64,000 nucleotides of DNA from a virus: positions 1 to 64,000 of the IMG/VR virus record IMGVR_UViG_3300043425_001539; one strand, 5' to 3'. The first letter of the stretch is position 1. Every line of letters starts with the position of its first letter. A program made the position numbers and the translations under genes. Shown here piece after piece: positions 31,723 through 58,240 of this stretch. Below the pieces are notes generated by a model that was given only the letters and a program-made list of their open reading frames with translations, searched no databases and was not told the origin of the DNA.

Positions 31723-33642
31723 TCATCCAATCTTTTCTATGTTTAAGTTGGAAAAACCGTTATTTTTAATAATATCCACCTTATAATCAAATATTTCCGT
31801 AGGTAATTGTGAGTGATTAATTACAAATATGTTTAAATTTAATTCTCTGCATGTTTTATGTAAAACTTTTAAAATGTGATATATCCCATCTGAGTCTATT
31901 GAAGAAAATATTTCATCTAAATAAATTAAGTTTAAACCTGCAAATTTAGTTTTCATTAGTCGTATTAAAGCAATTAAAACCGCAAAATCAACTTTTTTGC
32001 GTTCACCTGTGCTTAATTGTTCCGCTGAAACTTTAAATCCTAGATGTTGAATATCAACGTCAAATTCTTCATTAAAACTTACTCTATAGTCCATGTTTAA
32101 ATCATTTAATACTTTTTTGATCTCAACATTTAATACAGGTAAAATTCTTTTTAATGCTGATACTTTTACTCCTTTGTCTCCAAAGATGTCTTCTATAATT
32201 TTGTAAAAATTTGCCTTTTTTTCATCAACAGTTTTTCTTTGTATTGCTTCATTTTTTTTATTTGAATTGTCATTAATTATATTCTTTAATGATTGCGTTT
32301 GTTCATCAACTGCATGATTTTCTTTTAATAAATTAATTTCATTGGTATAAGAATATAATTGGGATGATGCATTTATTTTTTTATTATTTAATTCTGAATA
32401 CGCAGATTTAATTTTTTCTTTGCGTTCAGATAATTCTTTTATTTTTTCTCGAGTTTCCTCTATAATTTTTCTAGAACTTTCATCTCTTTTGATATATTCA
32501 TGCAATAAAAATTTGTGATGCTCGGTTGTTAAATCCGACTCGCAAGTGGGACATTTACCATTTTCATATAATCTTATTTTTTCAGTACATATGTGAATTT
32601 CCGTTTTATGACCATTTATGATATTTTCCCATTCTTTTAAAGTTGCTTCTACATCGTTATTCTTTTCTTTTATTTGTTTTAAATTTTCATCGGCATTCTT
32701 TATAAACTCATTTAGTTTTTGTATTTTCTCTAATAGGATAGTTTTCTTTTCTTCGCTTGCTTCTTTAATTTTTTGATTTAATAATTCAAGTTCATTTACT
32801 GATGCCGTTATATTGCGTTCTATCACCGAAATTTCTGTGTCTATCAAATCTATTTGTTCTTTCATTGTTTTGATTTGATACTTAACTTTCCATTTAATAC
32901 TTCCTAAAACCTCTAATCCAAACAACCTGTCTATAATCATTCGTTTATCGTGTACACCCATACTGATAAAACTCTTAAAATCATTAATGGACAAAGATAC
33001 CATATTATTAAATACATAGTACGGAACCCCTAAAATTTCGTCTTCTAAAAAATCTTGAACATTCTTTTTTCCTGCTTGGTCATATTCAATACCATTAACA
33101 TAAACCTTAAAAATACTTGGTGCAATTCCTCTTTCTATAACAACATGTGTACTTGAATTTTTTTCTACTTCTATTTTAACATATAAAGCATTATTAAACC
33201 TATTAGGTAATTCTTTTAATTTTTTGCCATCAACTTTTCCGTACAATCCAAATTTAATAACATCCGAAAGAGTAGAATTGTGTGATACAATATTATTTGC
33301 AAAAAATTCATGAACAGTATCAACTTCTATGTCATACAAATCATCTTTGTAATTTAATATATCGTTTGCAACTATTTCTTCTAATCCATGCTCTGTTTCT
33401 ATATAATCTCCTATTTTTAAATGTTTTACTTTAACCCATTCATTTTTCCAAAGTAAATGATCAGGTGAAGTTTTAATAAATTTTCCAGAAACTAATTTAA
33501 CACAATGAACTTCAGAATTTCTTGCTGTTATATCAATAGCTTTAATATCACGTTTCCCATATCGAGTTTTAACTTTAATACCTTCTATTTTTTCATTTTC
33601 AAAATGAATAAAATCGTATAAATCTTTTAGCGTGCAATTCAT
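31723..33642 (-). CDS. 46: gp46 recombination ATPase, C-part, preceded by split intein C-half
   Basis: 639 residues. Residues 1-122 are intein: block B-like KTSPDHLLW, then KVKHLKIGDYI, and the C-terminal splice motif FFANNIVSHN. The extein starts with Ser at 123 (STLSDVIKFGLYG), which completes the P-loop begun by the N-part: GSNGAGK + ST. The extein has a Rad50-type zinc hook (CPTC near residue 365) between coiled coils, the signature LSTGERKKVDFA and Walker B LIYLDEIFSSID. Assembled gp46 is 41 + 517 = 558 residues (T4: 560). With gp47 it resects DNA ends for recombination. The ATG at 33642 lies inside the 3' end of the endonuclease gene. Confidence 0.92.
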   Translation of the reverse strand: MNCTLKDLYDFIHFENEKIEGIKVKTRYGKRDIKAIDITARNSEVHCVKLVSGKFIKTSPDHLLWKNEWVKVKHLKIGDYIETEHGLEEIVANDILNYKDDLYDIEVDTVHEFFANNIVSHNSTLSDVIKFGLYGKVDGKKLKELPNRFNNALYVKIEVEKNSSTHVVIERGIAPSIFKVYVNGIEYDQAGKKNVQDFLEDEILGVPYYVFNNMVSLSINDFKSFISMGVHDKRMIIDRLFGLEVLGSIKWKVKYQIKTMKEQIDLIDTEISVIERNITASVNELELLNQKIKEASEEKKTILLEKIQKLNEFIKNADENLKQIKEKNNDVEATLKEWENIINGHKTEIHICTEKIRLYENGKCPTCESDLTTEHHKFLLHEYIKRDESSRKIIEETREKIKELSERKEKIKSAYSELNNKKINASSQLYSYTNEINLLKENHAVDEQTQSLKNIINDNSNKKNEAIQRKTVDEKKANFYKIIEDIFGDKGVKVSALKRILPVLNVEIKKVLNDLNMDYRVSFNEEFDVDIQHLGFKVSAEQLSTGERKKVDFAVLIALIRLMKTKFAGLNLIYLDEIFSSIDSDGIYHILKVLHKTCRELNLNIFVINHSQLPTEIFDYKVDIIKNNGFSNLNIEKIG

Positions 33643-33979
33643 AAATATTTTTTAAATTGTTTAAAAATTCATCAACATCGTCAGTATCCCAAACATATAA
33701 TAAAATAAAACCATTTTGTTCGGCTAATATTTTTTTACTATTATCATATAACATAGATTCTTCAGGAGTTTGATTGGAATAAAGTGATCGCCAAGAATCG
33801 TTATGTTTTTCTTTATTAAAATGAAATTTAGAACCTTGAAATTCTATTATAATTTTTTTAGACCTAATACAAAAATCGTAAAAAAATATTTTATTTTTTA
33901 ATTCTGCCCAAATATACCATTCTCTCTTGTCATTATATCCAAAAAAAATTTCATCATCAGAAATTCCGCTGTTTAACAA
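33599..33979 (-). CDS. Vsr-like homing endonuclease inside the split gp46 intein
   Basis: 126 residues in the same frame as the gp46 N-part and separated from it by a single TAA; the first codon after that stop is TTG, the only plausible start. The sequence is a compact Vsr-like nuclease: KKIIIEFQGSKFHFN (catalytic Glu and following His), an Asp in ESMLYDNSKK, and LLYVWDTDD. It matches the C-terminal domain of the endonuclease at 40420-41559 but lacks that protein's ~250-residue N-terminal region. Endonucleases of this EDxHD type are associated with split inteins in fractured phage genes. The 3' end overlaps the gp46 C-part by 44 bases. Confidence 0.7.
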   Translation of the reverse strand: MLNSGISDDEIFFGYNDKREWYIWAELKNKIFFYDFCIRSKKIIIEFQGSKFHFNKEKHNDSWRSLYSNQTPEESMLYDNSKKILAEQNGFILLYVWDTDDVDEFLNNLKNIYELHAKRFIRFYSF

Positions 33980-34198
33980 TTAAACGGGTTCTCTATTTTT
34001 AAGAAATTTTTTAAACCTTTCTTCTTTATCTTTATCATCAAAGAAAATTTCTATATTAGTTTCTTTATCTAAACATTTACCTGCTCCATTACTTCCTAAA
34101 ACTATATAAAAATTTCCTTGGTTTTCATCAAATACTATTTGCTGTGCATTATTTCCATAACTACCAAAATTTTTCCAGGAAATGCTTTTAATTTTCAT
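33980..34198 (-). CDS. 46: gp46 N-part fused to a very short intein N-half
   Basis: 72 residues. Residues 1-41 (MKIKSISWKNFGSYG... to GSNGAGK) are the N-terminus of an SMC/Rad50-type ATPase up to the P-loop lysine. Residues 42-72 start with Cys (CLDKETNIEI) and form a 31-residue intein N-half containing only block A. The complementary C-half, with block B onward, starts the gene at 31723-33642. Splicing in trans would restore the Walker A motif. This split between blocks A and B is atypical; most split inteins break near the endonuclease insertion site. Transcribed directly after gp47 (11-base gap). Confidence 0.88.
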   Translation of the reverse strand: MKIKSISWKNFGSYGNNAQQIVFDENQGNFYIVLGSNGAGKCLDKETNIEIFFDDKDKEERFKKFLKNREPV

Positions 34199-35317: not shown

Positions 35318-35743
35318 TTAAAATAATCTATAAATTTTTCGTTTTTTAAAAATTCCGTATTTAAGGTCCAATTCTTTTAAAAGTTTTTCTTTATATGCGG
35401 GAGATAGCTCATCATATAAAACATCATAAGATATACTCATAAATTCCGCAATATTAATAAATCTTTCAATTGCCGTAATTGCTTCGGTTTCCTTTAATCT
35501 TTCATCAAAATAATAATAAATTTGCGCAACTTCACTTCTTGGTACTTTTTTACTTTTATTATATTCATCGTAAAATTCAGAAGATATAAAGATTTGGTAT
35601 AAATCTTTTTGTAGCTGATTTTCTATGTATTCTTCAAAAAAATCTTTAGGCCTATGAATATCATTTACTTCAATTTTTCCAAATTGTTCAAATTCTAAAT
35701 CGCCTGTATTATAACGGTTATTAAATATTTTATCTTCTTTCAT
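35318..35743 (-). CDS. Hypothetical protein between gp41 and gp47
   Basis: 141 residues, acidic, mostly helical, with a basic C-terminus (KKRKIYRLF). The ATG overlaps the gp41 stop (TAATG) and the gene ends one base before gp47 begins, so it is embedded in the replication and recombination operon. No motif recognised. The location makes a helicase loader, primase-associated or recombination accessory function thinkable but unproven; no gp61-like primase is seen elsewhere in the window. Confidence 0.5.
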   Translation of the reverse strand: MKEDKIFNNRYNTGDLEFEQFGKIEVNDIHRPKDFFEEYIENQLQKDLYQIFISSEFYDEYNKSKKVPRSEVAQIYYYFDERLKETEAITAIERFINIAEFMSISYDVLYDELSPAYKEKLLKELDLKYGIFKKRKIYRLF

Positions 35744-37044
35744 TATTCTGTGATTATTGTTGAGTCTGGATCTTCTACAATTCGCATGTAGTCATAATTA
35801 ATTAAAAATTTTCTACGTGAATTTTTATATCCATCATCACGATTTGCAATAAGTTTTAAAATGTATTCACGATTAGCGTGCATAATCTCATCTTGTATGA
35901 TACCAAACATTGCATCAACTGTATGCCCAAGTGCAGCTGACTCCGAAATGTTTGTTGCATTTAAATCAGTGCTGCCAAAGCCTGATCTATTAATCTGTGT
36001 TGCTGTGATAATTGCCCAATCATTTCGCATTGCCATTGCTCGTAAGTCTTCAGCAATTTGTTTGATTTTCATATACATATTTTCTGAATTGGGATTTCTC
36101 CAATTCTTTAAGATATTAATATAGTCAAGGACAATTACTTTAAATTTTATTCCTTTGGTTTCTTCCATTTTTTGGAGATACATTTCAATATCAGGAACGC
36201 CAGCCGATGAAGTAGGAAATTCTTTTACGTATAATTTACCAGGAACTTGTAAACTATCATAACCTATCTGTGTTAGCTTTTTCTTCATCATAACTTTGTC
36301 TTCAGCAGCCTTAGCATATTCCTTCATGTTTACATTCAGTAAATTTGCACCCAGACGTTTAACCAATTTACGATCACGCATTTCTAATGAAAGAACCGCT
36401 GTGTTATATCCAAGTCTTACGCAATTAGCTGCAATATTTGCCAGCCAAATAGATTTTCCGATTTTCATTTCACCGATATAGCAAAATAACGCTTTTGAAT
36501 AAAATCCACCGCCAAGGACAAGATCAATATATGAAAACCCAGAACTAAAAGTATCTGATGTAGGCTGAATATGTGAATCGGGATTAAAGAAATCAAGTCC
36601 TTCATCAAATCCAAATTGAATATTATTTCTTTCTGTGATAATATTCTTTGCATTTTGCACAACATCCTTGACATTATCAACAGAAACTTTTGTTGTTTTT
36701 AAATATGTTATTAAGTCAAGAACGGAAATGTCAAGATTTTTATATTCAATCCACGATTCAGCTGTTTGCTGCAGCCAATCGTCATCATATTCTTTAAGAT
36801 TAACGTCAAATAAAGATTCGATTTTTGAAGGCACCAAATCTCCGTCGATGCCTTTTACTTTAGTTAATTCAACTATTTGAGACTTAGTTGGAATAGAATT
36901 ATACTTTTCAGTAAATTCTTTGGTTATATCATATATTTTTTTAATATCATCAGTTTCAAAAAATCTATTATTAACAACAGATATTAATTCTTTTCTTGAA
37001 AGAAGATAATGAAAAAATATTTTTTCTAAATGTACAGCTACCAT
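35743..37044 (-). CDS. 41: Replicative DNA helicase (T4 gp41, DnaB family)
   Basis: 433 residues (T4 gp41: 475). An N-terminal helical domain (residues 1-160) is followed by the RecA-like ATPase. The latter has P-loop GEMKIGKS at 191-198, AVLSLEM, the Walker B VIVLDYINIL, and ATQINRSG with a downstream DAMFGI and arginine-rich segment. It unwinds the fork as a hexamer. A TATAAATT element lies immediately before the ATG. Although gp41 is a known target of split inteins in other phages, this copy is uninterrupted. Confidence 0.93.
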   Translation of the reverse strand: MVAVHLEKIFFHYLLSRKELISVVNNRFFETDDIKKIYDITKEFTEKYNSIPTKSQIVELTKVKGIDGDLVPSKIESLFDVNLKEYDDDWLQQTAESWIEYKNLDISVLDLITYLKTTKVSVDNVKDVVQNAKNIITERNNIQFGFDEGLDFFNPDSHIQPTSDTFSSGFSYIDLVLGGGFYSKALFCYIGEMKIGKSIWLANIAANCVRLGYNTAVLSLEMRDRKLVKRLGANLLNVNMKEYAKAAEDKVMMKKKLTQIGYDSLQVPGKLYVKEFPTSSAGVPDIEMYLQKMEETKGIKFKVIVLDYINILKNWRNPNSENMYMKIKQIAEDLRAMAMRNDWAIITATQINRSGFGSTDLNATNISESAALGHTVDAMFGIIQDEIMHANREYILKLIANRDDGYKNSRRKFLINYDYMRIVEDPDSTIITE

Positions 37045-37077: not shown

Positions 37078-37401
37078 TTAGGACCAAGGATTATTAATAA
37101 CTTGATATTGCATTTCAGGTTTTTTACCTGACGTCAAACCTATTCTTTGTAAAAAAGCGCCTGGGCAATCTTCCGGATCAGCTGCATAATCCAAAAATCC
37201 TGAAAGCTCACTAATAGTGCCTACACCGTCTTTCATGTAAGGCCACACTTGAGACGGTGTAAAAGGACTATTTAGTTCTTCTTTGTCTGATAAGTTACTA
37301 AGAAGCATATATGTTAAATCAGTGTGTGATGGAAAGCTTTCCATCTCTTTATACACATTTAACAAATATTTAATAGGTAATTTGTTTTGATTAATCTTCA
37401 T
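37078..37401 (-). CDS. Hypothetical protein in the T4 gene 40 position
   Basis: About 107 residues from ATG 37401 (MKINQNKLPI); an ATG at 37407 is also possible. The frame extends further upstream, but that part is antisense-free overlap with the UvsX C-part and has a different composition, so it is not used. Contains WPYMKDGVGTISELSGFLDY and ends NNPWS. In T4 a small gene (40) also lies between uvsX and 41. I see no sequence evidence that the two are related. Confidence 0.5.
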   Translation of the reverse strand: MKINQNKLPIKYLLNVYKEMESFPSHTDLTYMLLSNLSDKEELNSPFTPSQVWPYMKDGVGTISELSGFLDYAADPEDCPGAFLQRIGLTSGKKPEMQYQVINNPWS

Positions 37402-38140
37402 TTTCATCTTCAAAAATATCTCCAATAATTTCGTCGTCTTCAATTTGATTAACGTCGCCAATATTTGGAAGCATAAACATTTTTTTGATAATTTTTTCGT
37501 CAAGCTCTTCTAATACTTCTTTAGTAATAACTCTTGAAGTAAATAAATCCTGTGGTTTAATTTCTTCGCACAAATGTCTGACTGCAATGGTACGTGCCGT
37601 TGGCTTATCTTCAAAATAAAAAACTGTTTCTGTTCCGTCTTCGTTAGTTTTGACGAATCTTGTTGACTCAATTATATCTTTTTTCTCATGTCCTTTTGCA
37701 TACGTTTTTTCAAATTCTTTTTGTGTAATTAGTTTACCTTTTTGAATCCCGCAATTTTCCCAATTTATGTATTCTTCTAATCCAACATAAGGATTCATTC
37801 CTTTATAAAAGGAAATATGGAATTTAATAGGTAAAGGACGAGCAAATCTATTTTTAGCTGGTTTTGAAGTTACGATAATTCCAGTTTTCATGGCAAAACC
37901 GTTAGAACCAACTGCTCCTTCTTTAAGGCCAGCTTTTGATAATTGAACTATGATTGATGCATTGTATATAGCTCCGCCGCCACCTGAAATTGTTTGTCCT
38001 GGAATAAAAGAACCGATTGAATTATGCATAATGACACCTTCTTTAGAAATATAATGGTGCTCATCTGCAACTTCAATATCATATACTGTGTTCAAGTTGC
38101 CTTGTTCTTTTTTAAGAAGTTTTAGTTTTTTCATATTCAT
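37391..38140 (-). CDS. uvsX: UvsX C-part preceded by split intein C-half
   Basis: 249 residues. Residues 1-40 are a conventional intein C-half: VYDIEVADEHHYISKEGVIM then HN. The extein begins with Ser 41 (SIGSFIPGQTISGGGG), which continues the UvsX chain ending FIFTNHTYA in the middle part. Downstream are AIYNASIIVQLSK, the C-terminal region typical of UvsX, and an acidic tail (EDDEIIGDIFEDENED), which in T4 UvsX contacts gp32/UvsY. The ATG (38140 or 38134) overlaps the endonuclease gene by 29 bases. Assembled UvsX is 68 + 140 + 209 = 417 residues (T4: 391). Confidence 0.92.
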   Translation of the reverse strand: MNMKKLKLLKKEQGNLNTVYDIEVADEHHYISKEGVIMHNSIGSFIPGQTISGGGGAIYNASIIVQLSKAGLKEGAVGSNGFAMKTGIIVTSKPAKNRFARPLPIKFHISFYKGMNPYVGLEEYINWENCGIQKGKLITQKEFEKTYAKGHEKKDIIESTRFVKTNEDGTETVFYFEDKPTARTIAVRHLCEEIKPQDLFTSRVITKEVLEELDEKIIKKMFMLPNIGDVNQIEDDEIIGDIFEDENED

Positions 38141-39149
38141 TTATTTTTAATTGTAATTCTTCATATGTTATGGAATTAGTTGCGCCTTTTGATAAATTTT
38201 CCACGAATGGAATAAATTCAAGATTTGCAATATGGGAAGCTATTAAAGGGTCTATACACATCTCAAAACAAGATCTGATTGACAAGCTATGATCTATGTG
38301 ATACATCATTTTTCCTCTTTTTATTTCCCAATTATTGCCAAATTTTGCGTTTCCATGGTTGATTAAAGTTTCTTCTGTTAATATTCTAACTAATTTTATA
38401 TATTCATTAAGAGTTAATATTTCTTGATTTATGAGTTTTTCAGATATAAATTTAACATCTTCAATGTCTATACCAAGTTTGGATGCCAACATTTTTCTTT
38501 TAAAAATGTCTACATGCATAGGATTACTTGTGTTATATTTTTGATTAAATGATGATAACCATTTTTCTTTAACATTTTTGTCTGACAGCGGATTTGGACC
38601 ACCGTATTTTTCTTTACATGTATTTTTTGCTTTTTCCTTAACAATGTCACTTTTTTGTGCTATTTCATTTCCGTACTTTATTTTCCAAGTTTTTGCTCTA
38701 GACTCTTTAAATCCTTCTATTTTAAAATTATGATTTACGCCGTATTTTTCTTGTAAGGTATTTTTTCGCTTCGTTTTAATTTCATTTTTTTCCGTCTCGC
38801 TAAGCATTGAATAAGTATTTGAATAAGATTCAGATCGTTTTCTTTTTATTTCTAAATCTTTAGCTTGATTAAATGCTCGACAAGAATGACTACAAAACAT
38901 TTTTTTCCCGCCGTCATTTATCAGAGTATTACATTCTTTACATATATTCATTTCTGTTAATTCATTAAGAATATACGTTATCCTAATTTTAATATCGGTG
39001 TCAGAATTACAAAAAGATGTATTTTCTATTATTAGATTATGTAAATCTTTTCTTTTATATAATTCTTTTTTAACATTTCCTAAATTAGAAGTATTTTTGT
39101 TTTTTTCTAATACAATTTTCCAATTATTTTCTGTAATGTGAAGTTTCAT
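38112..39149 (-). CDS. Free-standing HNH-type homing endonuclease in second UvsX split intein
   Basis: 345 residues lying between UvsX-middle and UvsX-C. It has a zinc-finger pair (CKECNTLI ... FCSHSC) near residue 95. A series of KYG repeats follows (TLQEKYGVNHNF, WKIKYG, CKEKYGGPNP, FNQKYNTSNP) of the type that reads DNA in modular phage endonucleases. The C-terminal HNH-like core is HIDHSLSIRSCFEMCIDPL, ANLEFIPFVENLSKGA. Its expected target is the uninterrupted uvsX of related phages. Its ATG is in the stem of a hairpin whose loop holds a late promoter (39138-39183), indicating that translation is blocked on read-through mRNA and allowed late. Confidence 0.8.
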   Translation of the reverse strand: MKLHITENNWKIVLEKNKNTSNLGNVKKELYKRKDLHNLIIENTSFCNSDTDIKIRITYILNELTEMNICKECNTLINDGGKKMFCSHSCRAFNQAKDLEIKRKRSESYSNTYSMLSETEKNEIKTKRKNTLQEKYGVNHNFKIEGFKESRAKTWKIKYGNEIAQKSDIVKEKAKNTCKEKYGGPNPLSDKNVKEKWLSSFNQKYNTSNPMHVDIFKRKMLASKLGIDIEDVKFISEKLINQEILTLNEYIKLVRILTEETLINHGNAKFGNNWEIKRGKMMYHIDHSLSIRSCFEMCIDPLIASHIANLEFIPFVENLSKGATNSITYEELQLKINEYEKTKTS

Positions 39150-39183
39150 AAGTTTTTATTTATATATCTCCATGAAACTTCAC
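39138..39183 (-). promoter_or_regulatory. Hairpin with loop-borne late promoter controlling the endonuclease
   Basis: GTGAAGTTTCAT (39138-39149) and ATGAAACTTCAC (39172-39183) are perfect complements, 12 bp. The loop of 22 bases carries TATAAATA on the minus strand (39164-39157). The endonuclease ATG (39149-39147) is in the downstream arm. Transcripts from upstream genes fold and hide the ATG; transcripts starting in the loop cannot. Confidence 0.75.
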
Positions 39184-39203
39184 AAATCATACATTTAGTT
39201 TCT

Positions 39204-40409
39204 TTATTGAGTTTGCTGCAAAATAAAATCACCTTCATTTAATTCATCTGCAGTTTTCCAGGAAGTCTCTTTATTCGGATCTTCATCCACAAGAAATTTA
39301 TGTAAAGGAGAACACTCAATTTCAATATTGTCTTCAAAAAATAATTTAACTGTTCTTGTTTTATCATATTTAAAAGTGTTTAACACCTCTTTACCGCCGT
39401 AAACAGTCATAACGGTATCACCTATTTTAATTTCATTAAGTTGTTTAATTTCGCCATTACCCATCATAATTTCTGTATCGCCTAAGGCACAAGCATATGT
39501 GTGATTTGTGAATATAAACGGGATTTTAAATTCTGCAAGATCTGTAGTAATCACACGGAAAAGTGATCTTAGATCTTGTTGTTTTGTCATATCCTTTTTT
39601 TCACTTCCTGATGCTGCATCTGCTTTTTCTTTGGTTGTTGCAAGATTTCCTAAAGAATCAAGAACCAATAAAATTTTAGGTAATTCTGCTCCTTTATCTT
39701 TTGCTTTTTTAAGTTGGTCACAAAGATTAGAAACAAAATGTCGTACTTCAAGTGATGTACTTACAGGTTGATACCGAACTCCTTCAGGGTCTATTCCAAA
39801 GTTACGCATAGTAGTTTCATCAACCGCAGCTTCTGAGTCACAGTATATAATATGATATCCCATTTTTTGGGCTTCACGGCAAGCATTCAAGGTTAAGAAT
39901 GTTTTTCCTGTGTTATGTGAAGATATACCGTCGCCGGCCCAATACCTATGATTTTCATGAAGCACCTCCCAGTCATATACTTCTTCTGTTCTTGTTGCAG
40001 AACATTTTTTTACATTATAAAAGCCATCTTTAGTTAAAACAGAATCCTTTGTTGTTAAATCTTCTGCTTTTTTCCAGCCATTTAATGTTTCATAAAGATG
40101 ATCTTGTGAAGATTCGCATACATAATTATTTTCTAATTCTAATTTGTATATTTTTCTTGGTTTCTTAATATAAAAGTTTCCAATAGGTTGATAACCGTCT
40201 GGTGTATCAATAAAAATTGCCGAATCTTTTAAAGATACTAATTCTCCAGCTGTAATTTCTATTGAATTTTCTTCAGCATGTAAATTAAATCTCTGTATAA
40301 TTTCATTATCCGATAAATGATCAAAATTTTCTTTAGGATAACAAAATTTTAATTCTTCGCGTAAAATTTCAGGGTCATAAATTGCTTTTTCTGTTTCAAG
40401 ATTTTGCAT
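39204..40409 (-). CDS. uvsX: UvsX middle part flanked by two split-intein halves
   Basis: 401 residues in three sections. Residues 1-166 are the C-half of intein 1: block B-like ESSQDHLYET with LNGWKKAEDL, ending YWAGDGISSHN. Residues 167-306 are UvsX: TGKTFLTLNACREAQ completes the P-loop, followed by IIYCDSEAAVDETT, the Walker B LLVLDSLGNL and IPFIFTNHTYA. Residues 307-401 are the N-half of intein 2: CALGDTEIMM, IKIGDTVMT, IECSPLHKFLV and ELNEGDFI. Splicing must occur at both ends to give active recombinase. A TTGAATATAA promoter-like element precedes the ATG by 22 bases, inside the end of the neighbouring endonuclease gene region. Confidence 0.93.
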   Translation of the reverse strand: MQNLETEKAIYDPEILREELKFCYPKENFDHLSDNEIIQRFNLHAEENSIEITAGELVSLKDSAIFIDTPDGYQPIGNFYIKKPRKIYKLELENNYVCESSQDHLYETLNGWKKAEDLTTKDSVLTKDGFYNVKKCSATRTEEVYDWEVLHENHRYWAGDGISSHNTGKTFLTLNACREAQKMGYHIIYCDSEAAVDETTMRNFGIDPEGVRYQPVSTSLEVRHFVSNLCDQLKKAKDKGAELPKILLVLDSLGNLATTKEKADAASGSEKKDMTKQQDLRSLFRVITTDLAEFKIPFIFTNHTYACALGDTEIMMGNGEIKQLNEIKIGDTVMTVYGGKEVLNTFKYDKTRTVKLFFEDNIEIECSPLHKFLVDEDPNKETSWKTADELNEGDFILQQTQ

Positions 40410-40419
40410 ATAGTGTATT

Positions 40420-41559
40420 TTATTTTAAATTTATATTCAATAAGTTTTTGATAGTTTCTTGATTATTTCTTTGATAATCCCAAACTACAAAATATAAAAA
40501 TCCAGCTTCTTCTGCAATACGTTTTTTTTCTTTATCTTTTTGCAATGATTCTTCATAAGTATAAATAGGATTTTTCCAATTTTCTTTTGACTTGTTAGAA
40601 TCAGCGTGCCAAAAACTTCCGTGATATTCAATAATTATCTTTTTTTCAGGAATGACAAAGTCATAAAAATAAATCTTTTTATTTACGTTATCATATAAAA
40701 AATATTCATTTTTTCCGTATAAACAATTAAGATTTATAAAGTAATTTTTTTCTATTTCTTTAAAGAAAATATATGATTCAGTTGAAAAAAATTTGTTTCT
40801 TTTTATTCTTTTACAAATTATTTCTAATTTTTCATCATCTGGTTTATTTGCCCAATTCTTTTTAAATAAGTCTATTCTTTTTTCATATCTTTTTATACCT
40901 TCGTCATAACCGTATTTTTTTACATATGCTTGAAGAGATGTTGTAGTTTGTCTTTCTTTTAATGCATTTTTTGCATCTTCAAGTGTTAAACCGCGTTCCA
41001 AATAAAAACTTAACTGTCTATCAGAAACAGCTTTCCCAAGTTTTTTATACAAAGTATTTTTTATTTTACCTGCGCGTGAACATCTATTAAAAATTTTTTG
41101 TTTAGCCTCTTCTTGCGTTAGACCCTGATTTTTTACAAGCCAATCTGCATTTAAACCATTACCTTTTCTTTTGTTTATTTCTGCTTTTTCTTCTTTTGTT
41201 TTTTTGGAAAGCGTTGCTTGTATTTTTGCAGCAATCTCAGGCGTACAGGTTGATTGTCTTTTCTTAATTTTTTCAATTGCTTGAGCTTTACTCCATCCTC
41301 TGTCTATCCAATAATTAATATTTAATTGGGTTGCAGAAAAAAAACCAATCATTGATAAACAAATTCTGCTTGCCTGTTTTTTTTCGATCTGAACATAATT
41401 ATCAAGATAACGTTGATACATTTTCTCAAATTCGTTTGTGTCTGCATCATAATTAAAATTTGAAACAAGCTGTCTTACATACTTGATATAATCATCGTAA
41501 GACAGCTTGTTTTTAAAAATGCTCAACGGATTTTTACTCTTCGATTGTGTACCTTTCAT
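40420..41559 (-). CDS. Free-standing Vsr-like homing endonuclease in first UvsX split intein
   Basis: 379 residues from ATG 41559; it overlaps the end of UvsX-N by 26 bases. Residues 1-250 are basic and helical with repeated segments resembling short DNA-binding modules (WIDRGWSKAQAIEKIKKRQS, WLVKNQGLTQEEAKQKI, YLERGLTLEDAKNALKERQ). The last ~125 residues are a Vsr-like nuclease: KKIIIEYHGSFWHADSNKSK, then KDKEKKRIAEEAGFLY and VVWDYQ. This is the EDxHD-type endonuclease group found with split inteins in fractured phage genes. The probable target is uninterrupted uvsX at the P-loop codons. No hairpin is seen at its start; it may be translated by coupling to UvsX-N. Confidence 0.8.
   Translation of the reverse strand: MKGTQSKSKNPLSIFKNKLSYDDYIKYVRQLVSNFNYDADTNEFEKMYQRYLDNYVQIEKKQASRICLSMIGFFSATQLNINYWIDRGWSKAQAIEKIKKRQSTCTPEIAAKIQATLSKKTKEEKAEINKRKGNGLNADWLVKNQGLTQEEAKQKIFNRCSRAGKIKNTLYKKLGKAVSDRQLSFYLERGLTLEDAKNALKERQTTTSLQAYVKKYGYDEGIKRYEKRIDLFKKNWANKPDDEKLEIICKRIKRNKFFSTESYIFFKEIEKNYFINLNCLYGKNEYFLYDNVNKKIYFYDFVIPEKKIIIEYHGSFWHADSNKSKENWKNPIYTYEESLQKDKEKKRIAEEAGFLYFVVWDYQRNNQETIKNLLNINLK
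40431..40440 (-). promoter_or_regulatory. TTGAATATAA promoter-like motif
   Basis: Exact TTGAATATAA on the minus strand, extended as TTGAATATAAATTTAAA, 22 bases before the ATG of UvsX-middle. Identical or near-identical elements lie before polymerase C-part (43279), gp52 (47433) and dUTPase (61191). Confidence 0.4.
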
Positions 41560-41818
41560 CAAATGTGCGGGTTTTCAGTATATATACTTTAACCTTTTCA
41601 TTTTTTGGCAAACATCCTGATTCACCCGCAAAACATATTGATCTTGAGTTTGGGATGCCTCCAAAGAGAGAGCCAGTTAATTGCGCATTTAACATAAAAT
41701 TGCCCGTAGGAATATATTCATCAATTTTAGAAAAAGTGTTGTGAGTGATGATCGATCCTTTAGGATTAATTTTTGACAGCGCTGAATCTAATTCAGAAAA
41801 AGAAAATGATTTAGCCAT
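41534..41818 (-). CDS. uvsX: UvsX N-part fused to a 26-residue intein N-half
   Basis: 94 residues. Residues 1-68 are the N-terminus of a RecA/UvsX-type recombinase (TGNFMLNAQLTGSLFGGIPN, then SICFAGESG), ending inside the P-loop. Residues 69-94 begin with Cys (CLPKNEKVKVYILKTRTF) and are the whole N-half of intein 1. The C-half opens UvsX-middle, whose extein TGKTFL restores GESGTGKT. Like the gp46 intein, this one is split unusually early, between blocks A and B. UvsX forms filaments on single-stranded DNA for strand exchange. Confidence 0.92.
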   Translation of the reverse strand: MAKSFSFSELDSALSKINPKGSIITHNTFSKIDEYIPTGNFMLNAQLTGSLFGGIPNSRSICFAGESGCLPKNEKVKVYILKTRTFDERYTIEE

Positions 41819-41820
41819 TT

Positions 41821-42084
41821 TTAGTTTATAGTATTTTTAAATTCTTGTAATGTTTTTTGTAGATTTGTATGTGAACTTGTTAAAGTTTGTTTGATTGATA
41901 AATATTCACTTTCAGGTAAAACGCTGGTATTAATAGTTTCAATGTATGAATCTCCTATTTCAATTGGTATGATATAGGACTCGGTATAAATATCAGGTTT
42001 TGAATGTAAATCTATATAGTTTACCAATTCATAATTTGAAAGATTATTAACATTTACATAGTGTATAAGAATTTCTTTTCTCAT
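41821..42084 (-). CDS. Hypothetical small protein between polymerase and UvsX
   Basis: 87 residues, acidic, with alternating strands and helices (YIIPIEIGDSYIETINTSVL). The ATG overlaps the polymerase C-part stop by one base and the gene ends two bases before UvsX-N, so all three are in one message. No motif recognised. Confidence 0.5.
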   Translation of the reverse strand: MRKEILIHYVNVNNLSNYELVNYIDLHSKPDIYTESYIIPIEIGDSYIETINTSVLPESEYLSIKQTLTSSHTNLQKTLQEFKNTIN

Positions 42085-43262
42085 TAAAACAATTGTGTTC
42101 TGACAATTAATTCCGGTGAAAGCGCAGGTAAACCCATTGCAACTATAAAGCGATTAATAGGATCAATAATACATCGTGCAAATTGCGCATCATAATCAAC
42201 CGGTGGTGCAATTTCTACAGGATAATTACCAGGCAAATATCCAAATACGTTTTCCCCGCCATCATTATTTTTTGCATAATAGAATCTAACCTTGTCGCCG
42301 CTTTTAATTAATTGATACTTATTTTTCCATTTACTATTATTGATTAAAAAATTATGATATCCTGAAGCACGAACGTGCATTGGACAATGGTCATTAATTA
42401 CTAATTTTTTTCTATCATCAGCAATTCCTTTTTCATAATCTCCTATGCTTGAAGACATAGAAATATTTTCAATGTTATCCAACATAAATGTTTCTTTTTC
42501 CCGTTTAAGAATTTCTGTAAATTTGCGTAAATTTAATGATTTACGTTCTCTTAGGATAACTTCAAGCAATTCTTTTAACTTTTTTCTTGCAAATGCTGGT
42601 GTTGAAGATTGAGCAATCTCCACGCCTGTTGCTTTAATTTTTTGTTGTGAATTATAAAAAATTCCGCCATTTGCACCACCTTTCCAAGCAAGATCTAATA
42701 CATATTTCTTTTTCTTTAAAAAGATTCCTGAATATGAAAGGGTTTCCATTTCCAAATCTTGAATATTTTCTGTGCCTGATTTTTTAGCCATAGATTCAAA
42801 ATTTTTCTCAAGATATTCTTTAAGACGATTTTCATAAATCATCATAATTAGTTTTCTTGTATCTTCTTTCCAATCACAGCCATTGACAATTTCTTGTAAA
42901 GTTATATAACAAGAATCCGTGTCTCCATAAACAGCAACCTCATCTTTTACCGGGTTTACTGTGTTTAATCCTAGTAATTCATGAAGCTTTTTATCTTTAT
43001 GCCAAAATTCTAAAAAATAACGATTAATAATTCTGCTTGTAAATTTAATCATTTCTTGTCCTTGTAAAGTAATAGCTTCAGCTACTTTTACGTTATAACC
43101 AACAAAATAAGTTGATGCTAATGCTCCATAACAACTATTAATAAAGATTTTTACAGATTGTTCCTCATTTTTTTTAAGATTCATTAAATATGTTAACCTT
43201 TCTATTTCCGATAAAATTTCTTCTCTAGTTGCAGAAGAAGGATCAATTTTACAGTATTTCAT
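42084..43262 (-). CDS. 43B: DNA polymerase B family, C-terminal part (T4 gp43 second half)
   Basis: 392 residues comprising the palm and thumb: motif B within VKIFINSCYGAL (residues 37-48), motif C YGDTDS at 112-117 with catalytic aspartates, then KKKYVLDLAWKGG and the thumb. The exonuclease domain and motif A are encoded separately at 59281-60657. The halves sum to 850 residues (T4 gp43: 898). No intein residues occur at either end, so the holoenzyme must assemble non-covalently, as in T4-like phages with 43A/43B. A GAATATAA motif is 17 bases before the ATG. The start region is duplicated at 44429-44548. Confidence 0.93.
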   Translation of the reverse strand: MKYCKIDPSSATREEILSEIERLTYLMNLKKNEEQSVKIFINSCYGALASTYFVGYNVKVAEAITLQGQEMIKFTSRIINRYFLEFWHKDKKLHELLGLNTVNPVKDEVAVYGDTDSCYITLQEIVNGCDWKEDTRKLIMMIYENRLKEYLEKNFESMAKKSGTENIQDLEMETLSYSGIFLKKKKYVLDLAWKGGANGGIFYNSQQKIKATGVEIAQSSTPAFARKKLKELLEVILRERKSLNLRKFTEILKREKETFMLDNIENISMSSSIGDYEKGIADDRKKLVINDHCPMHVRASGYHNFLINNSKWKNKYQLIKSGDKVRFYYAKNNDGGENVFGYLPGNYPVEIAPPVDYDAQFARCIIDPINRFIVAMGLPALSPELIVRTQLF

Positions 43263-54566: not shown

Positions 54567-55646
54567 TCATCCTTCACAACTTACGCAATCTGGGTCAGTT
54601 GCTCTTGCTGCTATATCACCTCGTAATACACTTTCTGTCCTTGTATAATATAAAGTTTTAATACCTTGTCGCCAAGCTTCCATATGTACTTGGTTAATCC
54701 ATTTAGGTTCAGCGCTTGAAGGGAAGGCAAGATTTAAAGAGACAGATTGATCTATGTATTGTTGTCGTATCCCAGCTTGCTTGACTAAATCCAATTGATT
54801 AATTTCTTTAAATGTCTTAAATACATCTTTAACCATATTGCATCTGTTTTGCTCATCTTGAGTTAATTCGTTAAAATTACACACCTTTCCGTCAAGAAAA
54901 CACCAGGAATCCAAAAAGTCCAGTCCTTGAATAGAACCGCCGTCCACAAAAATTTGATCCCAAACTTCTTTGGTATTTTTACCAATTCCTTCAAGTACTT
55001 TTTCAAGTTCGTGGTTTTTTCTAATAAAAGTTCCTTTTGCAGTTTGCTCAGTAAAAACATTGGCAGCCCAAGGCTCAATACCTGAAGATACGTTTCCACT
55101 TAATTTGGAATTTGACACAGTTGGAGCAACAGCACGTAAATGTGTATTTCTAAATCCTGTGTCTTTGCACCATAAAGGTTCACCGTATTCGTTTGCCAAA
55201 TCTCTACTTGCTCTTTCGCTTTCAATTTTTAATTGTGAAAAAATTCTGCGAGTTTCAAACTGAGCCTGTAGGCCTTCAAAAGGAATTCCGTTTTGTTGCA
55301 AATATGTATGCCATCCAAGTACGCCTAATCCTAATGCTCTTCCTTTTTCAGCTGATCTTACAGCATTTTCAAAGCCTTTCATATTTTTGGCTTTTTGTAT
55401 AAATTCCTCTAAAACTCCATCCAAAAACCAAGTAGCTGTATACATCAAATCCGTATCTTTCCACTCGTTGTATTTAGCAAGATTGAGAGAACTTAAACAA
55501 CAAACAAAAGAGTGCGATTCATCAGTGAAAAGCACAATTTCACTACAATTATGGACTAATATATCATTAGCATAAAAGTTTTTATTTTCAGCAACTGTTA
55601 TATCATAAACCGGTTCACGTTTTGTTGTTTTTTTAATTTTTAACAT
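54567..55646 (-). CDS. nrdA: Ribonucleotide reductase large subunit, C-part, preceded by split intein C-half
   Basis: 359 residues. Residues 1-33 are the intein C-half (EPVYDITVAENKNFYANDIL, VHN). The extein begins at Cys 34 (CSEIVLFTDES), which corresponds to the thiyl-radical cysteine of class I reductases (E. coli C439 in NLC-x-E-I). SFVCCLSSLNL holds the redox partner (C462 equivalent). TLYYTRTES has the two radical-transfer tyrosines, and CVSC at the end is the swivelling C-terminal pair. Together with the N-part it gives a 598-residue subunit, shorter than T4 NrdA (754). Confidence 0.92.
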   Translation of the reverse strand: MLKIKKTTKREPVYDITVAENKNFYANDILVHNCSEIVLFTDESHSFVCCLSSLNLAKYNEWKDTDLMYTATWFLDGVLEEFIQKAKNMKGFENAVRSAEKGRALGLGVLGWHTYLQQNGIPFEGLQAQFETRRIFSQLKIESERASRDLANEYGEPLWCKDTGFRNTHLRAVAPTVSNSKLSGNVSSGIEPWAANVFTEQTAKGTFIRKNHELEKVLEGIGKNTKEVWDQIFVDGGSIQGLDFLDSWCFLDGKVCNFNELTQDEQNRCNMVKDVFKTFKEINQLDLVKQAGIRQQYIDQSVSLNLAFPSSAEPKWINQVHMEAWRQGIKTLYYTRTESVLRGDIAARATDPDCVSCEG

Positions 55647-57055
55647 GTTTCAACTTTATTTTTTATTTTTATAAATTCAAATTGATCTAAATGAGTTTCT
55701 AAATTTTCTTTTAATTTTTGTGAAAATCTAGAAGAATTTGAATTTTCTTCAATTATCCTAGATTCATTTATATTATACTTTATCTCTGCAATACATTTAT
55801 CGTTTATTATTAAATAAAACATTACTTCACCCCAGTCTGGTTCAACTGTATAAAAGAACAAACCGTTACTAATAAAATAGCTTTTGGTTGGCAAATTCTT
55901 TATTATTTCATTTCTAGTAAGTCCTATAGAAATTCCCTTATTAGGTTCTATATTTTCCATTTCATGTGTTTTTTGATATATTTCCATTTCTTTCATTTTT
56001 TTAAAGTCTTTTATTGATAAGCCTTCTATGTTTGTTAGAAAAATATAATTATGATACTTTGCAGAAAACATAACACAATCTTGTATTTTTTCAAAATTTG
56101 ATTCATCTCTAATATATCCTTTTAATTCTATTAAATATTCTTCGTTATCAATATTAATAATAAAATCTGGCGTATATAATTTAGAGCCAATGCAAATAGT
56201 TACATTTTCATAAGACCAACTTTCTAATATATTTTCATTTGGTTTAATTATTTTTTCTATAAACTCAGATTCTAAAGAAGATCTAGTAATAAAAGGTTCT
56301 GTATTAAGGCATTTTTTAAAATCTGCGTTGTTAAATTCTGTTCTTTTAAATATTGGATTACCCATTGAATTTGAACCCATTATTGAATGATATGTCCCTA
56401 TTATAGAATTTATAATTTTATATGCCTCATCTAAATTACTGTCGGTTAAGTTTTTTAAGATATCTTTATCATAATATTTTTTATAAGCTTCTTTATTCCA
56501 AAAGTTTTGTATTTTAGATAATTTATATTCATCGCTATTAACTATCTTTCGTCGAAACTGCGAATAAATTTTATCTACATTTTCATTGGAGACGCCATCC
56601 AAGAAATATCCTTTATTTGATAAAACCAATCTTTTCCAATCTGTAGTATTAAATTCTTTATCGTAAGATTTTCGTTTATCTGTCCAATTATCCTTCTTAT
56701 TTTTTAAATTAGGTCTACCTTTAAGTTTTTTAGAGTGATCTGGTCTTCTTTTACCTCTAAATGAATGTCCCCTATTATAATTAGCATCTTTTACATCATG
56801 TCTAAATGTTATATTATCAAAAATTTTGTATTTGTTATCATCAACTTCAGATTTACAAACTTTTAAGAAATCATCTAATGTTAAGATTTTATTTTTTATA
56901 ATATACTTTAGTACATAAAAATATTTATCTTTATAGACTTTCTTACAAATATGTATAATACTTGAATCTATTAAATCTTCAATTTTTTCAATATTTTTTT
57001 TGATAGTTAATACAGATAGTTTTTTATACCCTTGTAATACTTCTAAAGTGTTCAT
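55640..57055 (-). CDS. Free-standing homing endonuclease in split NrdA intein (PD-(D/E)XK-like)
   Basis: 471 residues from ATG 57055 (MNTLEVLQ), between NrdA-N and NrdA-C. The N-terminal part contains a NUMOD3-like DNA-binding motif (GHSFRGKRRPDHSKKLKGRP). The central nuclease core is KLYTPDFIINIDNEEYLIEL followed by KGY, a D...ExK arrangement preceded by an acidic residue. The C-terminal ~150 residues are unassigned. The stop overlaps NrdA-C by seven bases. The ATG is hidden in a 14-bp hairpin (57045-57104) with a late-like promoter in the loop. Expected target: uninterrupted nrdA at the radical-cysteine codon region. Confidence 0.75.
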   Translation of the reverse strand: MNTLEVLQGYKKLSVLTIKKNIEKIEDLIDSSIIHICKKVYKDKYFYVLKYIIKNKILTLDDFLKVCKSEVDDNKYKIFDNITFRHDVKDANYNRGHSFRGKRRPDHSKKLKGRPNLKNKKDNWTDKRKSYDKEFNTTDWKRLVLSNKGYFLDGVSNENVDKIYSQFRRKIVNSDEYKLSKIQNFWNKEAYKKYYDKDILKNLTDSNLDEAYKIINSIIGTYHSIMGSNSMGNPIFKRTEFNNADFKKCLNTEPFITRSSLESEFIEKIIKPNENILESWSYENVTICIGSKLYTPDFIINIDNEEYLIELKGYIRDESNFEKIQDCVMFSAKYHNYIFLTNIEGLSIKDFKKMKEMEIYQKTHEMENIEPNKGISIGLTRNEIIKNLPTKSYFISNGLFFYTVEPDWGEVMFYLIINDKCIAEIKYNINESRIIEENSNSSRFSQKLKENLETHLDQFEFIKIKNKVETC

Positions 57056-57104
57056 GACCAATATAAATTTTATTTATGTTATATATTCAAGTCATGAACA
57101 CTTT
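57045..57104 (-). promoter_or_regulatory. Hairpin with loop-borne late-like promoter controlling the endonuclease
   Basis: AAAGTGTTCATGAC (57045-57058) and GTCATGAACACTTT (57091-57104) pair perfectly over 14 bp. The 32-base loop has CATAAATA on the minus strand (57078-57071), one mismatch from the late consensus, and TTGAATATATAA further upstream. The endonuclease ATG (57055-57053) is in the stem. Confidence 0.7.
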
Positions 57105-57109
57105 TTTAC

Positions 57110-58240
57110 TTAATTTGTAATTAAAATGTCATCTTCCAATAAATCTTTTGCCTCTACCCAACCTCTTTGTGTAAATAATTTATGATTAGCTGTGCATTTT
57201 ATTGTTTTATTATTATCTAAATCTTCAATTTCATATACTTCAGCTGAATCATCAGTCATACCAAAATCGGTTATTAATTTCCATTCATTTATGTTAGTAT
57301 CAATATTACGTGATAGCGTATAAATTTGATCTTCTAATTTAAGTATTTCACCAATTTCATCTATTCTTACTTTATGAATTTCATCACTTATTTTAATATC
57401 AATTATCGTATCACCTGTCACACAAATATTAGTCATAAATACTTTTAGACCGTTTTTCTTATATGATTCGGGGTTTTGTTTATTGACATTGCCTTTAAAC
57501 ATAATATAAGGTTCACCGGTCGCTTTTCTTTTTTGCAAAAGTTTGCCCCATTTACGGCGTGCTTCGGTATCACCATCTAATAATTTGCGCATAAATTTAT
57601 CACCAACAACTGCGCATTGATGCATATTTAATGATTGGCGATTAACATCACCTTTAGGTTCTCGTGTTTCCAACCAATCTTCAAAATCTTTATGCTCAAT
57701 ATTAATATTTGTACTTGCTGCGCCTCTTCTTACAGCACCTTGATTGGTTGCAAGAATTGTTGAATCATAAATTTTGCAAAAAGGAACCACTCCATCTGAT
57801 GTTCCATTACCCGTTATTTTTGATCCAGCAGGTCTGATTTGATTAATACCAATACCTACTCCACCTCCATGTTTTGCAAGCAACATTAGTTCCAAATTTT
57901 TAGAACCTATTTCATAAATACTATCGCCAACATCAATCCCAAAACAACTAATAGGTAATCCTCTATCTGTTCCCATATTTGACAAAACTGGTGATGCCAA
58001 GCCTAGCCAGCCTTTCCAAATATAATCAAAAAATTTAGTAGCAAGGTGTGGCTTTCCTAATCTTTTAGCAACAGTGGTAGAAACCCGCCAATAAGCATCT
58101 TTAGGTTTTTCTCCCGCTAAAAGATATCCTTTGGATATTGTGTTAACATAAATTTCTGTTGCGCCCCAATCAGGAATATCAACTCCAAGTTCCCAGCCCA
58201 ACATATCTAATAATTCTTGTACTTTTTCGTTATTCATCAT
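57110..58240 (-). CDS. nrdA: Ribonucleotide reductase large subunit, N-part, fused to intein N-half
   Basis: 376 residues. Residues 1-272 are NrdA: LASPVLSNMGTDRGLPISCF with the first redox cysteine, GGGVGIGINQIRPAG, GAVRRGAASTNINIEHKDF and a terminal VFMTNI. There is no N-terminal ATP cone, so allosteric activity control is absent. Residues 273-376 are the intein N-half: CVTGDTIIDI, IYTLSRNI, block B-like TIKCTANHKLFTQRGWVEAK and DLLEDDILITN. Splicing joins MTNI to CSEI of the C-part. This is a conventionally split intein. It follows NrdB by 16 bases. Confidence 0.93.
   Translation of the reverse strand: MMNNEKVQELLDMLGWELGVDIPDWGATEIYVNTISKGYLLAGEKPKDAYWRVSTTVAKRLGKPHLATKFFDYIWKGWLGLASPVLSNMGTDRGLPISCFGIDVGDSIYEIGSKNLELMLLAKHGGGVGIGINQIRPAGSKITGNGTSDGVVPFCKIYDSTILATNQGAVRRGAASTNINIEHKDFEDWLETREPKGDVNRQSLNMHQCAVVGDKFMRKLLDGDTEARRKWGKLLQKRKATGEPYIMFKGNVNKQNPESYKKNGLKVFMTNICVTGDTIIDIKISDEIHKVRIDEIGEILKLEDQIYTLSRNIDTNINEWKLITDFGMTDDSAEVYEIEDLDNNKTIKCTANHKLFTQRGWVEAKDLLEDDILITN

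What the first reader, a model, noticed from the sequence alone, without database searches (positions are those of the whole stretch)
37391..41818. UvsX recombinase encoded in three pieces joined by two split inteins
Seen: UvsX-N (68 residues) ends GESG before Cys; UvsX-middle starts after SSHN with TGKTFL and ends NHTYA before Cys; UvsX-C starts after MHN with SIGSF. Joined, they give a continuous recombinase of 417 residues with an intact P-loop GESGTGKT. Two homing endonucleases (Vsr-like and HNH-like) lie in the two gaps. Known: split inteins with intervening endonucleases ('fractured genes') were described from marine phage metagenomes (for example gp41, NrdJ, IMPDH), generally with one break per gene. 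One essential protein needing two orthogonal trans-splicing reactions from three messages is rarer. The two inteins differ in architecture, which should prevent cross-splicing.
Basis: partly seen in the sequence, partly recalled or inferred. Interest (0 to 1): 0.95.

Follow-up and report, generated by a model that had tools for sequence, protein, structure and literature searches.

The report
Phage recombinase assembled from three pieces
A phage's essential DNA-recombination enzyme (UvsX) is encoded as three separate genes that two different self-splicing 'split inteins' are predicted to stitch into one protein, and the same three-piece arrangement turns up in several other phage lineages.

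Summary
On the minus strand, UvsX is encoded as three ORFs (68 + 140 + 209 extein residues, 417 joined). Intein 1 (26-aa IntN, 166-aa IntC) interrupts Walker A (GESG|TGKT); intein 2 (95-aa IntN, 40-aa IntC) interrupts the start of the L2 DNA-binding loop (NHTYA|SIG). A nuclease-like gene lies in each gap. All splicing residues are present and no other UvsX is in the 238-kb record. Relatives with uninterrupted UvsX show exact empty sites: L031 lacks both inserts of its three-piece relative L021 (~88% DNA identity), and one 97-98% identical pair differs at site 2. Intein 1 belongs to the VidaL family of atypical split inteins; AlphaFold of a natural contiguous relative best matches VidaL (PDB 6vgv).

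New beyond the finding: three-piece UvsX recurs (L021, L142, L146, L153, L173), the last two using a third site in L2; parsimony on the extein tree needs at least 5 changes. The same genome also carries split inteins in gp46 (P-loop) and NrdA, so four pairs must work side by side. Splicing itself is inferred, not shown. The parts are of known kinds; a natural double trans-splice looks new.

The parts
41615..41818 (-). UvsX N-extein, 68 aa, ends GESG (first half of Walker A)
   Evidence: (phrog_97 positions 19-84)
41534..41614 (-). IntN of intein 1, 26 aa (CLPKNEKVKVYILKTRTFDERYTIEE) plus stop; short 'atypical' N-half with Cys1
   Evidence: other site-1 IntN halves are 15-33 aa
40420..41562 (-). 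Putative homing endonuclease 1 (380 aa from TTG), Vsr-like C-terminal domain; start overlaps IntN1
   Evidence: Vsr E=0.005, below cut-off; E286, D301, E312, H319, D343 invariant in 8 homologues
39912..40409 (-). IntC of intein 1, 166 aa including a ~48-aa helical N-terminal segment; ends ...SSHN
   Evidence: family profile matches VidaL intein 6vgv, E=1e-33
39492..39911 (-). UvsX middle extein, 140 aa, TGKTFL...NHTYA (second half of Walker A to start of L2)
   Evidence: (phrog_97 83-224, 7e-25)
39204..39491 (-). IntN of intein 2, 95 aa (CALGDTE...LQQTQ) plus stop; canonical split
   Evidence: (Intein_splicing, protein-level E=1e-12)
38112..39149 (-). Putative homing endonuclease 2 (345 aa), DUF7487 / phrog_3339 homing endonuclease, HNH-like C-terminus; overlaps IntC2 ORF by 29 nt
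   Evidence: DUF7487 3e-15; phrog_3339 5e-12
38021..38140 (-). IntC of intein 2, 40 aa, ends MHN
   Evidence: (Intein_splicing profile positions 130-155)
37391..38020 (-). UvsX C-extein, 209 aa, starts SIGSF (Ser+1), plus stop
33980..34198 (-). Same genome, separate split gene: gp46 (Rad50-like) N piece, 41-aa extein ending GSNGAGK plus 31-aa IntN
31723..33642 (-). gp46 C piece: 122-aa IntC ending VSHN, then STLSDVIKFGLYGK...; short nuclease-like ORF 33599-33979 (DUF559, below cut-off) between the pieces
57110..58240 (-). NrdA N piece ending MTNI, then 104-aa IntN (canonical split)
54567..55646 (-). NrdA C piece: 33-aa IntC ending VHN, then CSEIVLF...; 473-aa ORF 55640-57061 between the pieces

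Best explanation
This is a doubly fractured gene. Two unrelated split inteins, each with a free-standing nuclease-like gene in its gap, occupy two sites in uvsX: Walker A and the start of the L2 DNA-binding loop. Three separate polypeptides are made. IntN1 (on UvsX-N) pairs only with IntC1 (on UvsX-M), and IntN2 (on UvsX-M) only with IntC2 (on UvsX-C). Each pair folds into a Hint domain and trans-splices by the class 1 route (Cys1 N-S shift, transfer to Thr+1 or Ser+1, Asn cyclisation). The result is one scarless 417-residue UvsX. Because site 1 cuts the ATP-binding loop and site 2 the DNA-binding loop, no fragment should be active alone. The nucleases probably drove homing into uvsX; the inteins then persist because only exact removal restores the enzyme. 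Cross-pairing is disfavoured by architecture: IntN1+IntC2 make only 66 residues with no block B, while IntN2 and IntC1 duplicate each other's middle. Shown by sequence: pieces, junctions, motifs, empty sites, constraint. Inferred: expression, pairing, splicing, homing.
For: Exact in-frame junctions and joined 417-aa UvsX. Walker A/L2 placement against RecA and phage UvsX structures. Full splicing residues: Cys1, block B His, block F Asp and His, terminal His-Asn, Thr+1/Ser+1. Empty-site tests: L031 v L021, 87-93% DNA identity, lacks exactly both inserts; L028 v L022, 97-98% identical, differs by the 437-bp site-2 insert. Selection: dN/dS about 0.2 for IntC1 core and IntN2; pN/pS 0.22 for IntN1 and 0.09 for IntC2. 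Inteins outlast nucleases: HEG2 decayed in L021, absent in L022; L142 has no nuclease at either site. Natural contiguous relative L145 folds as a Hint domain (pLDDT 91), best PDB match VidaL, TM 0.85 normalised to target; profile v VidaL E=1e-33. No intact UvsX. No Rfam intron in window 30-60 kb. Recurrence.
Against: No splicing, expression or endonuclease data. The record has no end repeats, so an intact copy outside it is not strictly excluded. dS is near saturation between window and L021, so dN/dS values are rough. Nuclease activities rest on weak or by-eye similarity. Non-covalent reassembly is known for other split phage enzymes (NrdA of Aeh1, gp43 of phage 25; PMC2988022).
Confidence: 0.9

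Rival explanations
1. The inteins are dead or inefficient and the three UvsX fragments (with intein tails) reassemble non-covalently into a working recombinase, as with split NrdA of phage Aeh1.
For: Non-covalent split phage enzymes exist (PMC2988022); this phage's own PolB is split with no intein half seen on its C piece.
Against: All catalytic residues are kept and all four halves are under purifying selection. Breaks lie inside Walker A and at L2, with 26-166 foreign residues attached, which makes unspliced function unlikely.
Confidence: 0.06
2. Decaying gene or assembly artefact: uvsX is a pseudogene here and an intact copy or the host RecA does the work.
For: Record may be incomplete (no end repeats).
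Against: Identical second record; other three-piece UvsX in L021, L142, L146, L153, L173; strong constraint on exteins (dN/dS 0.05-0.10); no other UvsX in 238 kb.
Confidence: 0.03
3. The interruptions are removed at RNA level (group I/II introns or trans-splicing RNAs) rather than at protein level.
For: Homing endonucleases also sit in phage group I introns (established knowledge).
Against: No Rfam match in window 30-60 kb; Hint motifs and extein-intein reading frames are continuous at all four boundaries.
Confidence: 0.01

Closest known systems
'Fractured genes' with split inteins and free-standing endonucleases (Dassa et al. 2009, NAR, PMC2677866; paper not held, content from own knowledge)
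   Same: Conserved phage DNA-metabolism gene broken by a split intein with an endonuclease gene, often Vsr-related, in the gap
   Different: Described with one break per gene; here one gene has two breaks with two unrelated split inteins and needs two trans-splicing reactions
VidaL atypical split intein (PDB 6vgv/6vgw; 16-aa IntN per PMC13014065)
   Same: Intein 1 belongs to the same sequence and structure family (E=1e-33; top Foldseek hit). From memory, one VidaL intein comes from a UvsX gene ('VidaL UvsX-2')
   Different: Split about 10 residues later (26-aa IntN) and the IntC carries an extra two-helix segment of ~45 aa that the VidaL alignment lacks
AceL-TerL / GOS-TerL atypical split inteins (25 and 37 aa IntN; PMC11766414)
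   Same: Short natural IntN of similar length, very long IntC
   Different: Different host gene; VidaL is the closer match in the PDB searches, which hold no TerL intein that was matched
Two-piece UvsX of cultured Pseudomonas phages PA5oct, Paride and relatives (Wroclawvirus)
   Same: UvsX split at exactly site 1 by a VidaL-type intein with a nuclease-like ORF between
   Different: Only one break, 17-aa IntN; not annotated as an intein in the records
Salicola phage SCTP-2 gp204
   Same: UvsX with two inteins, the first at site 1 and homologous to intein 1
   Different: Both are contiguous (cis) inteins in one ORF; the second sits at another site in L2

Membership tests
Split intein (class 1), intein 1 | Cys1, block B TxxH-type His, block F, terminal His-Asn, Cys/Ser/Thr +1 | tested here: met
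   C1; SSQDH; VYDWEVLHENHRYW; SSHN; T+1
Split intein (class 1), intein 1 | Hint fold | tested here: met
   Natural contiguous homologue L145: pLDDT 90.7, top PDB hits all inteins; window halves themselves could not be co-folded
Split intein (class 1), intein 2 | Same motif set with canonical split at the endonuclease site | tested here: met
   C1; SPLH; VYDIEVADEHHY; MHN; S+1; Pfam Intein_splicing in both halves, the C half only weakly (E=0.008)
Split intein (both) | Actual protein trans-splicing | not testable with these tools
   Needs expression and mass spectrometry
VidaL-family atypical split intein (intein 1) | Sequence and fold homology to VidaL | tested here: met
   Profile v 6vgv E=1e-33; Foldseek rank 1
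VidaL-family atypical split intein (intein 1) | Split directly after beta-strand 2 (16-aa IntN) | tested here: not met
   IntN is 26 aa; relatives range 15-33 aa. Same intein family, different split point
Fractured gene | Host gene broken by a split intein, endonuclease gene in the gap, exact empty sites in relatives | tested here: met
Fractured gene | Gene broken in two | tested here: not met
   Broken in three; hence a variant
UvsX recombinase | RecA-fold core with Walker A, L1/L2 regions when pieces are joined | tested here: met
   phrog_97; PDB UvsX 9gbg E=2e-51 and RecA matches with profile A1
Vsr-like (EDxHD) homing endonuclease, ORF 40420-41562 | Vsr-related catalytic core | tested here: inconclusive
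   Pfam Vsr E=0.005 below cut-off; E/D/E/H/D invariant in 8 homologues; AlphaFold pLDDT 61, unusable
HNH-like homing endonuclease, ORF 38112-39149 | Member of an annotated homing-endonuclease family with HNH motif | tested here: inconclusive
   phrog_3339 homing endonuclease 5e-12 and DUF7487; HNH motif (HIDHSLSI...NLEFIPF..N) by eye only

The most novel reading that the evidence does not exclude
UvsX in several phage lineages is kept in three pieces for a reason: double trans-splicing acts as a delay or dosage control on recombinase assembly, so the tripartite state is selected and not merely tolerated. Tripartite loci that have lost one or both nucleases yet remain split (L142, L146, L021) leave this open.
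Probability: 0.12. Interest if true: 0.9.

Novelty: new variant of a known kind. Interest (0 to 1): 0.68.

Why it matters
If splicing is confirmed, one essential protein needs two natural, orthogonal trans-splicing reactions in one cytoplasm, and evolution has reached this state repeatedly. The set of relatives (empty, one split, two splits, contiguous, with and without nuclease) is a ready natural series for testing how genes fracture and whether inteins can be lost. It also supplies naturally co-existing split-intein pairs (four in this genome) for protein engineering, where orthogonality is a limiting factor, and cultured phages (Paride, PA5oct) in which the site-1 reaction can be tested directly.

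Tried and rejected
Searched for an intact UvsX or RecA in the record: none. The fractured-genes paper is not held; text searches for 'split intein' + UvsX, and for natural three-fragment trans-splicing, returned nothing on point. The first IntC1 scan with two sequences found only the two known loci; the wider profile found 41. Bacterial and archaeal genome contigs: none. RNA-intron rival: no Rfam match. A T4-late-promoter-like TATAAATA precedes HEG2 (39157-39164), but the motif is only mildly enriched (23 v 15 expected), so it was not used. Read-through joining was excluded by insert lengths and stops. Looked for a TnpB homologue inside other inteins: the closest relative stands alone.
Full report
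OBSERVATION. The window is bases 1-64000 of a 238,475-bp virus record. Five ORFs on the minus strand span 41818 down to 37391: UvsX-N, ORF 1, UvsX-M, ORF 2, UvsX-C. Splitting them at the Cys1 and His-Asn boundaries gives extein pieces of 68, 140 and 209 residues that join to 417. The N and M pieces match consecutive stretches of the UvsX family profile (19-84, then 83-224), and all three join without gap or overlap against intact relatives.

WHERE THE BREAKS LIE. Against RecA and phage UvsX structures, break 1 falls inside the ATP-binding P-loop (GESG|TGKT; RecA GPES|SGKT). Break 2 falls just after the strand carrying the RecA Gln194-equivalent, at the start of the DNA-binding loop L2 (FTNHTYA|SIG; RecA FINQIRM|KIG; the RecA residue numbering is from own knowledge). 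No single piece holds a complete ATP site and DNA-binding loop. That the fragments are inactive alone is inference.

THE INTEINS. Intein 1 has a 26-residue IntN and a 166-residue IntC; intein 2 has 95 and 40. Both carry Cys1, a block B His, a block F Asp/His and a terminal His-Asn, with Thr+1 and Ser+1 respectively. Between the window and its relative L021, dN/dS is about 0.22 for the IntC1 core and IntN2, pN/pS is 0.22 for IntN1 and 0.09 for IntC2, against 0.05-0.10 for exteins and 0.37 for ORF 1. Synonymous sites are near saturation, so these are rough, but none looks like neutral decay. Only the extra N-terminal segment of IntC1 is relaxed (0.64).

EMPTY SITES. Contig L031 has an uninterrupted UvsX and is 87-93% identical at DNA level to L021, which has the three-piece form; the alignment breaks at the two junctions, with inserts of about 1.7 and 0.75 kb. 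L028 and L022 are 97-98% identical and differ by a 437-bp insert at site 2 and a second, 2.3-kb insert in the gp41 helicase, which ORF reading shows to be another split intein at Walker A. Sites can therefore be gained or lost within close relatives.

NUCLEASES. ORF 1 (40420-41562) has a weak Vsr match (E=0.005, below cut-off) and five acidic/His residues (E286, D301, E312, H319, D343) invariant in eight homologues from split-intein gaps; from memory this resembles the EDxHD homing-endonuclease signature. Its predicted structure was poor, so 'Vsr-like' is likely but not shown. ORF 2 (38112-39149) matches phrog_3339 homing endonuclease and DUF7487. In L021 ORF 2 is cut to 97 residues while the intein stays intact; L022 has no nuclease at site 2; L142 has none at either site. 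The inteins outlast their nucleases.

INTEIN 1 IS VIDAL-TYPE. A scan with the IntC1 family (queried with the adjoining UvsX sequence) found 41 viral loci, nearly all with the intein at the UvsX P-loop and with IntN halves of 15-33 residues where separate. Four relatives are contiguous: L145, L155, L172 and Salicola phage SCTP-2. AlphaFold of the contiguous L145 intein (pLDDT 90.7) is a Hint domain whose best PDB match is VidaL (6vgv, TM 0.85 normalised to the target), and the family profile matches VidaL at E=1e-33. In the model the natural split point lies in the coil between the first strands and a two-helix segment (helices 22-41 and 50-63) that VidaL lacks. A 53%-identical IntC splits the P-loop of a PhoH-like protein in a 462-kb phage, so the family also occurs in a different P-loop protein.

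THREE-PIECE UVSX RECURS. Besides the window (and its identical record L020) and L021, two-break UvsX occurs in L142 and L146 (sites 1+2), in L173-175 (sites 1+3, where site 3 lies in L2: SGG|C...HN|SGF; L168 is the same type with the contig ending early), and in L153 (site 1 plus KGGQ|C...SSN|CME). On an extein tree of 52 rows, the sites 1+2 state needs four separate changes even when only well-supported branches count, and the tripartite state overall needs five (L153 is not in that tree). Changes can be gains or losses and some rows are long-branched (L146, L154), so 'at least four or five changes' is the safe statement. In every case a short-IntN intein at site 1 is combined with a canonically split intein at the second site; since site-1 inteins always have that architecture, this is not independent evidence for selection on orthogonality, but it does make cross-pairing structurally unlikely.

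LOAD IN THE SAME GENOME. gp46 (Rad50-like) is split at GSNGAGK|STL by another short-IntN intein (31 + 122 aa), and NrdA by a canonical one (104 + 33 aa). Four split-intein pairs must therefore coexist. Pairwise similarity among IntN halves is at most modest, and among IntC halves it is that expected of distant Hint domains.

MECHANISM. Shown by sequence: pieces, junctions, motifs, empty sites, constraint, fold of a natural homologue. Inferred: three polypeptides are translated, each IntN meets its own IntC, and two class 1 trans-splicing reactions give scarless 417-residue UvsX. Short IntN1 plus IntC2 (66 residues, no block B) cannot build a Hint domain, and IntN2 and IntC1 carry overlapping middles. 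In engineered systems, overlapping halves of the same intein and short-peptide atypical halves can cross-react (PMC7090010), so orthogonality should be tested, not assumed.

RIVALS. Non-covalent assembly (as in Aeh1 NrdA, PMC2988022) is the main rival; conservation of every splicing residue argues against it. Pseudogene or artefact is opposed by recurrence and by extein constraint. RNA splicing is opposed by the lack of any Rfam match and by continuous reading into Hint domains.

NOVELTY. Fractured genes, VidaL-type inteins and (from memory) UvsX as an intein host are known kinds. I found no description of a natural protein needing two split inteins (the library holds only open-licence papers and lacks the 2009 paper). 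I rate this a new variant of a known kind, with the recurrence as the most interesting part.

Noticed in passing
L026 6779-8020: A TnpB-like gene (Cas12f1-like TNB domain, E=2e-21) lies between the two halves of the site-2 split intein of UvsX, in the place usually held by a homing endonuclease; an 80%-identical TnpB in L127 stands alone. Possible TnpB serving or hitch-hiking in a split intein.
   Followed up: partly
L137 599-3861 (LR756500.1): PhoH-like protein fractured at Walker A (GKAG|TGKT) by an intein 53% identical to UvsX intein 1, with a nuclease-like ORF between: the same intein family in a different P-loop ATPase.
   Followed up: partly
L135, L136 (PA5oct NC_071039.1, Paride OR805295.1): Cultured Pseudomonas phages have UvsX split at site 1 by an unannotated VidaL-type intein; the records list two 'UvsX-like recombinase' genes, or a hypothetical protein plus one UvsX.
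   Followed up: partly
L022 7759-11359; L026 9488-11678; L035 7707-10508: Relatives have gp41 helicase split at Walker A (e.g. GEMKIGK|C...HN|SIWLAN) by another short-IntN split intein, with a nuclease-like ORF in L022 and L035; the window's gp41 (35743-37044) is intact.
   Followed up: partly
window 42084-43262 and 59287-60417: Family B DNA polymerase is split into N and C genes about 16 kb apart; no intein half was seen on the C piece; stand-alone C pieces are also seen next to uvsX in relatives L021, L022 and L072.
   Followed up: partly
G000:C1 75249-76988 (L002): Contiguous mini-intein inserted at a K|TDG motif resembling the nucleotidyltransferase/ligase active site, in a 579-aa protein with no other significant Pfam family.
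   Followed up: no
L026 4059-5789: PolB C-piece with a contiguous intein at YGDTD|S, the catalytic motif.
   Followed up: no
window, starts of ORFs at 41818, 40409, 38140, 34198: No Shine-Dalgarno-like sequence; A-rich stretches precede the starts, which with the similarity of UvsX to Prevotella Lak phages hints at a Bacteroidota host.
   Followed up: no
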